This document shows positions 31,639 through 51,066 of a stretch of DNA of 64,000 nucleotides, in pieces. Source of the DNA: Proteus terrae subsp. cibarius (GTDB lineage: Bacteria; Pseudomonadota; Gammaproteobacteria; Enterobacterales; Enterobacteriaceae). The notes beneath the pieces were generated by a model. That model saw nothing but the letters and a program-made list of their open reading frames with translations. It ran no database searches and had not been told where the DNA came from. Position 1 is the stretch's first letter. Every line of letters starts with the position of its first letter. Both the position numbers and the translations under genes were made by a program. The DNA is taken from assembly GCF_011045835.1 (NCBI RefSeq), contig NZ_CP047349.1, positions 3,782,001-3,846,000 on the forward strand, given 5' to 3'.

Positions 31639-31998
31639 TTGATATCCTTTCCCCTAACTAGGGAGTAAAAGAGTCATAAAGAACATTCAACTAAGCAGGA
31701 AGCATGCCAATTGTTTTTCAAAATATAATCAATGAGATATAAAAATAAAATAATATTTGATAATCGTTTCGTCATTTTTGTCGATGATTACCATGCACAA
31801 ATAGGGTTAATACTCGAACTTATTACGGAGTTAAGTGATTAGCATCAGGAAAACATTTTGAAATAAAAATTAATACTGAATTCTAATAAAATTTATTTCT
31901 TTAGTTTGAATTTATGATATAAATAATAAATACGCATTTTGAAAAACAATATTTCATATTGCATTGCGATTATATCCATTTCAATAAAGAGCAAAAAG
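31639..31998. other. fdhF promoter region and upstream of the leucine leader
   Basis: This AT-rich stretch holds the fdhF sigma54 element (31694-31710) and, further right, the presumed promoter of the leader-transporter unit near TTTGAA and TATAAAT at about 31905-31925. I see no other gene. FhlA sites cannot be assigned by eye. Confidence 0.4.
31694..31710 (-). promoter_or_regulatory. Sigma54 promoter of fdhF
   Basis: On the minus strand the sequence reads TTGGCATGCTTCCTGCT, with the invariant GG-N10-GC spacing of sigma54 promoters. It lies about 56 bases before the fdhF start, matching the E. coli arrangement in which FhlA activates fdhF. Confidence 0.72.
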
Positions 31999-32055
31999 AT
32001 GAATATGAACACCAACAACCGACTCCTAGGCCTAAACCTACTACTCCTTCGTTAG
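31999..32055 (+). CDS. Leucine-rich leader peptide (18 residues)
   Basis: ATG 31999 opens the peptide MNMNTNNRLLGLNLLLLR, ending at TAG 32053-32055. Seven of 18 codons are leucine, written as CTC, CTA, CTA, CTA, CTA, CTC, CTT. None is TTA or CTG, although TTA dominates elsewhere in the window. An AAAGAG stretch about 8 bases upstream may be a weak ribosome site. A terminator with a competing upstream arm follows at 32082-32107. This is the layout of leu-type attenuation leaders (leuL). The next gene is an NSS transporter rather than leuABCD. Translation is inferred from codon bias and context. Confidence 0.72.
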   Translation: MNMNTNNRLLGLNLLLLR

Positions 32056-32107
32056 GTGGCCGAGCACGTTCATTTTTTTGCAAAAGCCACCAGTCAGGTG
32101 GCTTTTT
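32055..32107 (+). promoter_or_regulatory. Attenuator: terminator with competing antiterminator arm
   Basis: The terminator is a 10-bp perfect stem (AAAAGCCACC at 32082-32091, AGTCA loop, GGTGGCTTTT at 32097-32106) followed by T. GGTGGC at 32055-32060, just after the leader stop codon, is a copy of the right arm and can pair with GCCACC at 32086-32091 instead, which would prevent the terminator. A ribosome at the stop codon would cover the copy and favour termination; a ribosome stalled at the leucine codons would leave it free. A second small stem (CCCCTA at 32114-32119, TAGGGG at 32137-32142) follows. Confidence 0.7.
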
Positions 32108-32149
32108 GTTGTGCCCCTACTGGTGGAACTGTTTTTTAGGGGAGTTTCT

Positions 32150-32257
32150 ATGATGTTTAGTTTCACCATTAGGATGATGAGTTACAACGTCTTACCAATA
32201 AGCCACTGTATGGCAATGCCTTTCATAACAAACCAAATGAAGCAGGAGGCAAAATGA
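32150..32257 (+). CDS. Short ORF (35 residues) overlapping the transporter start
   Basis: ATG 32150 is preceded by a strong ribosome site, AGGGGAG at 32138-32144. The frame runs 35 codons to TGA at 32255-32257, which overlaps the ATG of the transporter (ATGA at 32254-32257). It is methionine-rich and has no family I recognise. It could be a coupling ORF that brings ribosomes to the transporter, a second regulatory ORF, or a small subunit. The transporter also has its own AGGAGG site inside the ORF. Whether the peptide itself has a role is unknown. Confidence 0.45.
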   Translation: MMFSFTIRMMSYNVLPISHCMAMPFITNQMKQEAK

Positions 32258-33570
32258 GCCAACAATGGACATCACGAGTCGGTCATATCTTAGCAGCCGC
32301 TGGCTCTGCAATCGGTATTGGCGCAATCTGGAAGTTTTCTTATGTCGCAGCCAATAATGGTGGTGGTGCATTTTTAATTGTCTTCTTGTTATTTAGTTTT
32401 GTTATCGGGCTTGCTGTATTACTGGCTGAGAATATTTTGGGCAGTAGCACACACGCTGAAGCCGTGAACGCATTTAAAAGAATGATGGGACGCAATTGGG
32501 TCATCATTGGCGTTATTGGTGTATTCAGTTCATGGTGTATTTATAGCTTCTATAGCGTTGTCGGTGGCTGGACAATTGGCTATACCGTTATGGCGGCAAC
32601 AGGTCAGTTGAATATTACAGATAGCGCTGAATTAACAGGTATTTTTACCCGCTTTATTAGTGATCCGTTATGGCCTATTTTGGCTCACCTTGCCTTTGCT
32701 GGATTAACCTGTTTTGTAGTTTTAGCGGGTGTACAACGTGGATTAGAGAAAGCGGTTAAAATCATGATGCCAATGTTATTTATCATTATGATTTTATTGA
32801 TTATTGTTGGTATCAGTTTACCCGGATCTTCTGAAGGTTTAAAATTATTTTTATACCCTGATTTCAGTAAGTTAACCCCTCAAGGCGTATTAGATGCGTT
32901 AGGGTTAGCCTTCTTCTCACTGTCTATCGGTTTAGGTATTCACATCACTTACAGTGCTTATTTAGCGGATAACAAAGGTATCGCTAACTCCAGTATGTGG
33001 GTGGTTATTTTATCTTGTATGGTGTGTGTCCTTGCCGGATTAATGATTTTCCCTGCATTATCTGCCGCAGGTTTAGAGCCGAATGCAGGCCCCGGTTTAA
33101 CCTTTATGACTATGCCGGTTTATTTTGCCAACTTACCCGGCGGTAATATTTTAGCAGTAACTTTCTTTGTCTTGTTATTAATGGCGGCGTTAACCTCTGC
33201 AATTTCATTACTTGAGCATATCGTAGCTTATGTACAGATGCGTTTTCAGTGGACTCGCCGTCGTGCAGGATTAGTCGTTACAGCCTCTATTATGCTGATG
33301 GGTATTCCGGTTTCATTATCTTTTGGACCTATGAGTGATGTGACATTAGGTGGTAAAACAGTTTTTGATTTGTTGGATTACCTGACTTCCAATATTTTGA
33401 TGCCACTGTTTGGTATTGCAATGTGTTTGATCTTTGGTTGGTCAAGTAGAGCGAACGCATTTATTCCTGAAAATATCACTGGGTTAAAACGCCAAAGTTT
33501 ATTATTAGTATGGCGTTATATTGGTCCAATTTGTATCGGTATTATTTTAGTTCATGGATTAATTGGCTAA
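32254..33570 (+). CDS. Sodium-dependent amino acid transporter, NSS (LeuT-like) family
   Basis: This 438-residue protein has about eleven or twelve membrane helices. The LeuT-type unwound TM1 is clear (GSAIGIGAIWKFSYVAANNGGGAF), as is the matching TM6 region (FFSLSIGLGIHITYSAY). NSS transporters import amino acids with Na+. The leucine-codon leader upstream suggests leucine or another branched-chain amino acid as cargo, but related enterobacterial members carry tyrosine or tryptophan, so this is inference. AGGAGG is about 6 bases before ATG 32254. It is the last gene of its unit. Confidence 0.85.
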   Translation: MSQQWTSRVGHILAAAGSAIGIGAIWKFSYVAANNGGGAFLIVFLLFSFVIGLAVLLAENILGSSTHAEAVNAFKRMMGRNWVIIGVIGVFSSWCIYSFYSVVGGWTIGYTVMAATGQLNITDSAELTGIFTRFISDPLWPILAHLAFAGLTCFVVLAGVQRGLEKAVKIMMPMLFIIMILLIIVGISLPGSSEGLKLFLYPDFSKLTPQGVLDALGLAFFSLSIGLGIHITYSAYLADNKGIANSSMWVVILSCMVCVLAGLMIFPALSAAGLEPNAGPGLTFMTMPVYFANLPGGNILAVTFFVLLLMAALTSAISLLEHIVAYVQMRFQWTRRRAGLVVTASIMLMGIPVSLSFGPMSDVTLGGKTVFDLLDYLTSNILMPLFGIAMCLIFGWSSRANAFIPENITGLKRQSLLLVWRYIGPICIGIILVHGLIG

Positions 33571-41400: not shown

Positions 41401-41495
41401 TGGCGGAAGATCACAGGAGTCGAACCTGCCAAGGACCGCTGGCGGCCCCATCTGGATTTGAAGTCCAGCCGCCCCACCGGGGACGATGATCTTCC
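41401..41495 (-). tRNA. selC: tRNA-Sec (selC), anticodon UCA
   Basis: This 95-base gene includes the encoded CCA end. The arms agree with E. coli selC: acceptor GGAAGATC/GATCTTCC, anticodon loop CTTCAAA in GGACTTCAAATCC, a long variable arm GGGGCCGCCAGCGGTCC, and the T arm GGTTCGACTCC. The eight-base-pair acceptor stem and long extra arm are the marks of tRNA-Sec. Its presence shows that the genome keeps at least this part of the selenocysteine machinery. Confidence 0.96.
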
Positions 41496-50834: not shown

Positions 50835-50933
50835 CACTTTCAGATGCACCACCTTCAGGGTCATATGAAAGAACGACATTGCTCACATTGCTTCCAGTGT
50901 TTTACTTTAGCCAGCCGGGTGCTGGCTTTTTCT
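50835..50933 (+). ncRNA. ryhB: RyhB small RNA
   Basis: The conserved core GACATTGCTCACATTGCTTC is at about 50874-50893, followed by an intrinsic terminator (AGCCAGC at 50909-50915, GCTGGCT at 50921-50927, then T). This matches E. coli RyhB, which pairs with mRNAs of iron-using proteins through Hfq when iron is low. The 5' third differs from the E. coli sequence. The start is inferred from the promoter. The next gene is yhhW, as in the E. coli neighbourhood. Confidence 0.93.
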
Positions 50934-51066
50934 TTTCTAGAACTTATTCGATGTTTTTGTTTCCTCTTATTCAAATTATTTGGATCTTCAGGTTAAATTC
51001 CTCCGCTTTTTTACTTTGCGCTATTGAGTAAACTGTGTTCAACAACTTCAGAGAAGGAAACACATT

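What the first reader, a model, noticed from the sequence alone, without database searches (positions are those of the whole stretch)
31999..32257. Leucine-codon leader and attenuator controlling a LeuT-family transporter
An 18-residue leader (31999-32055) has seven leucine codons, all CTN (four CTA), in a window where TTA is the usual leucine codon. It is followed by a clean intrinsic terminator (32082-32107). A copy of the terminator's right arm, GGTGGC at 32055-32060, next to the leader stop codon could pair with the left arm instead. This is the logic of leu/ilv attenuation, but the next gene is an NSS (LeuT-like) transporter at 32254. If it works, leucine starvation would release transporter expression. 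I know of no described case of a leucine leader attenuating an NSS transporter, although I cannot search.
Basis: partly seen in the sequence, partly recalled or inferred. Interest (0 to 1): 0.78.

Follow-up and report, generated by a model that had tools for sequence, protein, structure and literature searches.

The report
Leucine attenuator before an NSS transporter
A short leucine-codon "test gene" and an RNA on/off switch, kept across several genera of gut and insect bacteria, sit in front of a sodium-coupled amino-acid transporter and most likely turn it on only when leucine runs short.

Summary
Leader ORF 31999-32055 (MNMNTNNRLLGLNLLLLR*) has seven CTN leucine codons. Arm A (GGTGGC) overlaps its stop codon and can pair with B (32086-32091), which otherwise forms a terminator with C. 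The unit is conserved and stays with the transporter: 20 of 20 genomes of the genus (Proteus), and 5 of 5 Morganella, 3 of 3 Edwardsiella and 2 of 14 Xenorhabdus loci. All 18 strong model hits in 392 family genomes lie beside the NSS gene or, once, its remnant. Leaders keep rare leucine codons where the genus avoids them (Morganella: CTA 0.6% of leucine codons, 4 of 5 in the leader compared), though 13 of 20 Proteus leaders hold one common TTA. A few stem positions change in step, about one lineage split. Rfam Leu_leader does not match it; this genome has its own leuL. The other 12 Xenorhabdus loci carry a decayed brnQ-like 5' end instead, open in frame into the transporter. Best reading: ribosome-mediated attenuation by leucyl-tRNA shortage. 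Response and substrate are inferred, not shown. The kind is known; I found no earlier report of this member.

The parts
31915..31923 (+). Predicted extended -10 promoter element (TGATATAAA)
   Evidence: TGNTATA upstream of the leader in 24 of 25 sequences scanned (some of these are near-identical), 157-175 nt before arm B in Morganellaceae, 127-128 nt in Edwardsiella, absent in L006; inferred, no start site measured
31999..32055 (+). Leucine leader ORF, MNMNTNNRLLGLNLLLLR*
32055..32060 (+). Arm A (GGTGGC), overlaps the leader stop codon; 5' half of antiterminator
32086..32091 (+). Arm B (GCCACC), pairs with A or with C
32082..32107 (+). Intrinsic terminator B:C with T-run
32120..32130 (+). Element D (CTGGTGGAACT), third copy of the GGTGG motif; folds with 32159-32168 around the ORF2 start
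   Evidence: sequence conserved in the 17 Proteus, Morganella and Xenorhabdus sequences aligned; structure only weakly supported
32150..32257 (+). ORF2, 35 codons plus stop, stop overlaps the transporter start (ATGA); probable translational-coupling ORF
32254..33570 (+). NSS-family sodium:amino-acid symporter, MhsT-like, 438 aa

Best explanation
A leader-peptide transcription attenuator controls the transporter. With enough leucyl-tRNA the ribosome runs to the leader stop codon, covers arm A, and B pairs with C to form the terminator, so the transporter is off. When leucyl-tRNA is short, especially for rare CTA/CTC/CTT codons, the ribosome stalls in the leucine run before A; A pairs with B before C is made, and RNA polymerase reads through. 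ORF2 then carries ribosomes to the overlapping transporter start. The transporter is most likely a leucine or branched-chain (broad hydrophobic) importer. Shown: the ORF, codon choice, possible alternative pairings, conservation and linkage to the transporter. Inferred: ribosome stalling, starvation response, coupling and substrate.
For: Anatomy. Geometry (own arithmetic, with the recalled figure that the ribosome reaches about 15 nt past the first base of the P-site codon): stalls with leader codons 9-15 in the A site leave A free, a ribosome at the stop codon covers it. Folding: before C is made A:B is the best fold (-12.2 kcal/mol, 32054-32095); with A masked the terminator is best (-15.7). 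Codons: Morganella CTA 0.6% of Leu against 4 of 5, P=6e-9; CTA/CTC/CTT set P=0.00072 to 3e-6 in five genera. Pairing: B:C 96.5% of cells paired, 2 pairs changed on both sides; A:B 99.2%, 1 such pair. Substrate hint: MhsT, the nearest solved relative (E 4.7e-93), takes leucine, isoleucine, valine and aromatics (PMC9350835, passages); in one leaderless Xenorhabdus the gene is preceded by a copy of the brnQ 5' region (78% over 313 nt).
Against: No expression or transport data. The complete terminator is more stable (-15.0 for B:C against -9.3 for A:B alone; best fold of 32054-32112 with A free is the terminator, -18.4, against -14.3 with A:B enforced), so antitermination depends on timing. Covariation is scanty and mostly one split (Edwardsiella and g126 against the rest). 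Cells changed on both sides and covariation score beat all 500 shuffles, but the number of pairs changed on both sides does not (196 and 241 of 500 shuffles reach it), nor do pair types (500 and 241 of 500); for A:B a +3 slide has a higher covariation score (0.128 against 0.093) at 66.7% pairing. One B:C pair fails in 7 of 22 sequences, one A:B pair in 1 of 22. The antiterminator stem is short (6 pairs here). CTA itself is not enriched in g126 (none) and little in Edwardsiella (P=0.035); 13 of 20 Proteus leaders hold one TTA, the commonest leucine codon. Other NSS loci (12 Xenorhabdus, one Photorhabdus, one MAG, L041, 7 Aeromonas) lack the leader, so the gene can do without it.
Confidence: 0.87

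Rival explanations
1. Leader peptide arrest sensor: the nascent peptide senses free leucine (or an antibiotic) in the ribosome tunnel and stalls at its stop codon, as TnaC does with tryptophan (recalled); arm A is then held covered and transcription ends.
For: The leucine run reaches almost to the stop codon and arm A starts at the stop codon itself.
Against: Only leucine is common to all leaders; residues around it vary, including the last residues before the stop (R, S, Y, L, H, K, E, ST, II). Rare codon choice is kept even where CTG dominates, which a peptide sensor would not need.
Confidence: 0.06
2. The hairpin is only a terminator of a short RNA or a fixed dampener, and the leucine run is incidental.
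For: Strong intrinsic terminator; another 7-CTN short ORF occurs in the window.
Against: Leader, rare codons and arm A at the stop codon are conserved with the terminator over five genera.
Confidence: 0.04
3. The switch is real (compatible with the best explanation in that respect) but it reports leucine shortage to a transporter of something else, for example aromatic amino acids.
For: MhsT also carries Trp, Tyr and Phe (PMC9350835, passages); the clade here departs from the usual GNIWRF motif, so specificity cannot be read off.
Against: Amino-acid leaders mostly serve the pathway of their own amino acid (PMC3766115, passages); the brnQ-like 5' ends in Xenorhabdus point to branched-chain amino acids.
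Confidence: 0.3

Closest known systems
leuL / Rfam RF00512 Leu_leader (leuABCD attenuator)
   Same: Leucine leader peptide, antiterminator arm late in the leader, terminator sharing it; this genome's own leuL is MLNAILLSSLLLLATFMRGRLMGKK* and matches RF00512 at 52.4 bits
   Different: Different target (transporter, not leuA), other arm sequences (GGTGGC against GCGCGG, read), arm A at the stop codon, no RF00512 match at E up to 5. Caution: RF00512 also missed 2 of the 4 leuA regions given to it (L186, L187)
RNA attenuators predicted for histidine genes in Firmicutes (PMC9413887)
   Same: Leader-peptide attenuators; [quoted passage not shown]
   Different: Histidine, ABC transporter, Firmicutes
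MhsT (Bacillus halodurans, PDB 4US3) of the NSS/SLC6 family
   Same: Nearest solved relative, E 4.7e-93 over residues 3-433
   Different: GAIWKF in place of GNIWRF in TM1; regulation of mhsT not examined
T-box leaders of amino-acid transporters in Firmicutes
   Same: Couple tRNA charging to transporter expression (PMC2494555, search listing with abstract start)
   Different: Direct tRNA binding by RNA; no T-box match here

Membership tests
Amino-acid leader-peptide (ribosome-mediated) transcription attenuators | Short ORF rich in codons of the regulating amino acid, before a terminator | tested here: met
Amino-acid leader-peptide (ribosome-mediated) transcription attenuators | Mutually exclusive antiterminator whose arm is free when the ribosome stalls at control codons and covered at the stop codon | tested here: met
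   Arm positions, pairing over 22 sequences, folding; footprint size recalled, no RNA probing
Amino-acid leader-peptide (ribosome-mediated) transcription attenuators | Readthrough rises on starvation for that amino acid | not testable with these tools
   needs expression data
Rfam RF00512 Leu_leader | Covariance-model score at or above gathering | tested here: not met
   no match in the window nor at E<=5 in 31850-32300; none in the leader regions on L012, L020, L042, L039, L006. The model finds own leuL (L184) and L182 but misses L186 and L187, so a miss is weak evidence
Rfam RF00512 Leu_leader | Lies before leuA | tested here: not met
   next large gene is NSS; leuA is elsewhere, C1:2775642
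NSS (SNF, PF00209) transporters | Family profile match over cut-off | tested here: met
   PF00209 124.2 and 71.4 bits for two stretches of the gene, cut-off 27; NF037979 129.3 bits, cut-off 50
MhsT-like leucine-transporting NSS | Canonical TM1 GNIWRF motif | tested here: not met
   GAIWKF in the window and in 12 of 12 gammaproteobacterial orthologs aligned with it; of 6 more distant homologs 4 have GNIWRF and 2 GAIWKF
MhsT-like leucine-transporting NSS | Sodium-coupled leucine transport | not testable with these tools
   needs transport assay
T-box | RF00230 match | tested here: not met
   not among the matches

The most novel reading that the evidence does not exclude
The leader deorphanises a clade of NSS transporters that lacks the canonical GNIWRF motif as leucine-starvation-induced leucine/branched-chain importers, a gene that evolution put under branched-chain control twice: by a leucine attenuator in Proteus, Morganella, Edwardsiella and some Xenorhabdus, and by capture of the brnQ 5' end in other Xenorhabdus, with an upstream coupling ORF kept in both. 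A further layer may act through element D, which can pair with B and folds around the ORF2 start.
Probability: 0.4. Interest if true: 0.62.

Novelty: new member of a known kind. Interest (0 to 1): 0.5.

Why it matters
Leucine leaders are textbook control of leucine biosynthesis; PMC3766115 (passages) says that most genes in operons under Rfam amino-acid leaders encode biosynthetic enzymes. A conserved leucine leader on an NSS transporter extends this logic to import, predicts the substrate of an uncharacterised clade of the family that includes the neurotransmitter transporters, and gives an easily tested reporter. The brnQ-like 5' ends in Xenorhabdus look like a natural promoter swap that points to the same physiology.

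Tried and rejected
Rfam family for the leader: none. Leader as a plain copy of leuL: arm sequences differ, but the peptide cores are alike (RLLSLLLL in the g126 leuL), so descent of the leucine run from leuL is possible and not shown. Element D/ORF2 hairpin as a proven second switch: 86.6% of cells pair, but 134, 470, 66, 438 and 61 of 500 shuffles reach the five observed measures, so it stays a suggestion. A 5' stem-loop after the promoter folds better than mononucleotide shuffles (z about -4) in 4 of 5 Morganella loci, with z between -2.6 and 0.5 in the other sequences; not claimed. Weaker R1 hits: 24 loci (L127-L150) were read as other leaders or chance; the remaining listed and unlisted weak hits were not. 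The genome scans of over 40 genomes used stricter filters that lose weak matches. Literature: ten searches (listings of at most 20 rows) showed no leucine leader on an NSS transporter; passages of five papers were read, no paper in full. The library lacks most subscription journals; Vitreschak et al. 2004 (attenuators in proteobacteria) was seen only as a reference and, from recall, predicts histidine transporters under attenuators, so an earlier prediction cannot be excluded. Rows left out: A1 used 22 sequences, without L014, L011 and most unnamed genus loci; A2 used 17, without Edwardsiella and g126, whose D region differs; for g126 codons I counted the six CTN codons and left out two TTG and one TTA of the longer frame that one search prints, taking a GTG as start.

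Full report
What is there. The window carries, on the + strand, an 18-residue leader ORF (31999-32055) with seven CTN leucine codons, a GGTGGC arm (A) that begins at the last base of its stop codon, a complementary GCCACC (B, 32086-32091) and a second GGTGGC (C, 32097-32102) followed by a T-run; the next large gene on that strand is an NSS transporter at 32254-33570, and the gene behind it lies on the other strand, so the transporter is probably transcribed alone. A predicted extended -10 element lies at 31915-31923; TGNTATA is found upstream of the leader in 24 of 25 sequences scanned, some of them near-identical, and not in L006.

Is it chance? In 39 long ORFs of the window TTA is 48% and CTA 9.5% of leucine codons. 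Given leucine, seven of seven CTN has probability 0.0019 and four or more CTA of seven 0.0023. In 200 simulated sequences an ATG ORF of at most 20 codons with seven CTN codons occurs 0.01 times per 64 kb. The window itself has one other such ORF, on the minus strand, so conservation is the stronger argument.

Conservation. A scan for the transporter gave 78 distinct loci, the best 80 of 158 relatives being kept; a genus search gave 20 of 20 genomes with the gene (the genus is Proteus by its match to the named loci); a family sample gave 9 of 198 genomes with a match, one of them only pieces. The leader is present in all 20 genus genomes. A covariance model built from 22 aligned leaders finds it in 21 of the 78 loci, always upstream of the transporter: 11 Proteus, 5 Morganella, 3 Edwardsiella, 2 Xenorhabdus; 20 of these 21 trained the model, and three further matches at E 0.05-0.06 are minus-strand echoes within these loci. 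Among 394 genomes of the order the only strong hit is the window's own genome, the next best has E 2.3e-5. At least one of five window neighbours was found in each of the 11 Proteus loci and none in the other 32 loci of L012-L054 (pieces over 80 residues, E up to 1e-20), so leader and transporter stay together while surroundings change.

Codons. Leaders vary in residues other than leucine, yet keep rare leucine codons. With one leader per genus: CTA is 0.6% of leucine codons in four Morganella loci but 4 of 5 in the M. morganii leader of L020 and L021 (P=6e-9; other Morganella leaders have 3 of 5 and 4 of 6). In Edwardsiella, where CTG is 70%, 6 of 7 leader codons are CTA, CTC or CTT (P=0.0002), CTA alone P=0.035. 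In g126, where CTG is 48%, six counted leader codons are all CTC or CTT and none CTA (P=3e-6 for the set, from 249 leucine codons). Against this, 13 of 20 genus leaders hold one TTA, the commonest codon there. P values treat codons as independent draws. The bias is what a tRNA-charging sensor would need.

Pairing. B:C pairs in 96.5% of 198 cells, with two pairs changed on both sides (A-U to G-C, 4 of 22 sequences each); one outer pair fails in 7 of 22. A:B pairs in 99.2% of 132 cells, with one pair changed on both sides in 3 sequences and kept as G-U in one; one pair fails in one sequence. The double changes all separate Edwardsiella and g126 from the rest, so they count as about one event. 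Against shuffles, cells changed on both sides and covariation score are beyond all 500, the number of such pairs is not (196 and 241 of 500 reach it), and one slid control (+3) for A:B has a higher covariation score at 66.7% pairing. The folding order is right: A:B is the best fold before C is transcribed, the terminator is best when A is masked; once C is complete the terminator wins even with A free. So the switch must be kinetic, as in known attenuators.

Downstream layer. Between terminator and gene lies ORF2 (32150-32257), whose stop overlaps the transporter's start. In the window and in 16 of 16 Proteus and Morganella loci an ATG-started frame runs into this overlap; of the two leader-bearing Xenorhabdus one has such a frame and one has an open frame without ATG; Edwardsiella has none. 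The TGA overlap itself follows from a transporter beginning Met-Ser, so only the open frame is informative. In 13 of 14 leaderless Xenorhabdus, Photorhabdus and MAG loci a brnQ-like start opens a frame that runs into the same overlap, 22 to 80 residues from that Met; L030 (Photorhabdus) has only 8 open codons (likeness to brnQ judged by eye except as follows). PF05525 matches the fragment in G012 and G160, 44.5 and 42.3 bits, and in G160 (locus L034) 313 nt around it are 78% identical to the 5' region of the intact brnQ about 6 kb away. I read this as promoter and start-site capture, with an ORF kept for translational coupling. Element D can also pair with the B side (exact 7-base complement in 17 of 19 sequences) and folds around the ORF2 start, but covariation does not support that fold beyond shuffles.

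The transporter. It is the only NSS gene found in this genome (two matched stretches of one gene). The best solved relative is MhsT, which carries Trp, Tyr, Phe, Val, Leu and Ile (PMC9350835, passages). The window and 12 of 12 gammaproteobacterial orthologs aligned have GAIWKF where MhsT and 4 of 6 more distant homologs have GNIWRF. From recall, the Asn is a sodium ligand and the Arg a gate residue in LeuT, so energetics and specificity may differ.

Comparison. This genome has a separate leuL before leuA that matches Rfam Leu_leader; the NSS leader does not, but that model also misses two of four leuA regions tested, so the miss is weak evidence by itself. The general kind, ribosome-mediated attenuation, is classical. 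PMC9413887 reports T-boxes and/or a new attenuator on the his operon and/or the hisZ*YX transporter in Firmicutes (passages). PMC3766115 says most genes under Rfam amino-acid leaders encode biosynthetic enzymes (passages). I saw no leucine leader on an NSS transporter in the listings of ten searches of an incomplete library.

Verdict. A leucine-specific attenuator on an MhsT-like transporter is well supported in anatomy and evolution (0.87); that the cargo is leucine or branched-chain amino acids is likely but untested (about 0.6). It is a new member of a known kind.

Noticed in passing
L127-L138 (genera g142, g72, g152, g2, g26): 12 of 12 of these weaker model hits lie upstream of a TrpRS-like gene (e.g. 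[28 protein letters not shown]...), with tandem Trp codons (e.g. MNTNVTVIRSNRWWLPS*) and a GC-rich terminator: an apparent tryptophan attenuator on a second tryptophanyl-tRNA synthetase (gene named by eye).
   Followed up: partly
L140, L144, L145, L150: Leaders ending in four isoleucine codons and Pro (e.g. MKLNLMHQLIRIIIIP*) with a terminator, upstream of a P-loop kinase-like gene (MKKIAVFGKPGSGKST...) in two other families of the order: an apparent isoleucine attenuator on a gene of unknown link to isoleucine (gene named by eye).
   Followed up: no
L025-L037, L044: Decayed brnQ-like 5' end in front of the NSS gene in 13 of 14 loci, kept open in frame into the transporter start at lengths of 22 to 80 residues.
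   Followed up: partly
window 32120-32126 and 32087-32093: Element D (CTGGTGG) is an exact complement of B plus the first terminator loop bases (CCACCAG) in 17 of 19 Proteus, Morganella and Xenorhabdus sequences; in Edwardsiella both sides have changed (CGCCGG and CCGGCG, read by eye). Role unclear.
   Followed up: partly
window 32254-33570: NSS clade with GAIWKF instead of GNIWRF in TM1, shared with Sutterella (L057) and Sutcliffiella (L059) homologs.
   Followed up: partly
L107, L108 (one Proteus genome) and L009, L010, L126 (G137): The NSS gene reads in two pieces in one Proteus genome and is a remnant in one genome of g137, with the leader still present in both.
   Followed up: no
window 41405-41495 (-) and 50867-50934 (+): Rfam matches: selenocysteine tRNA and the sRNA RyhB. 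RyhB also lies on the 13-kb Edwardsiella NSS locus L042.
   Followed up: no
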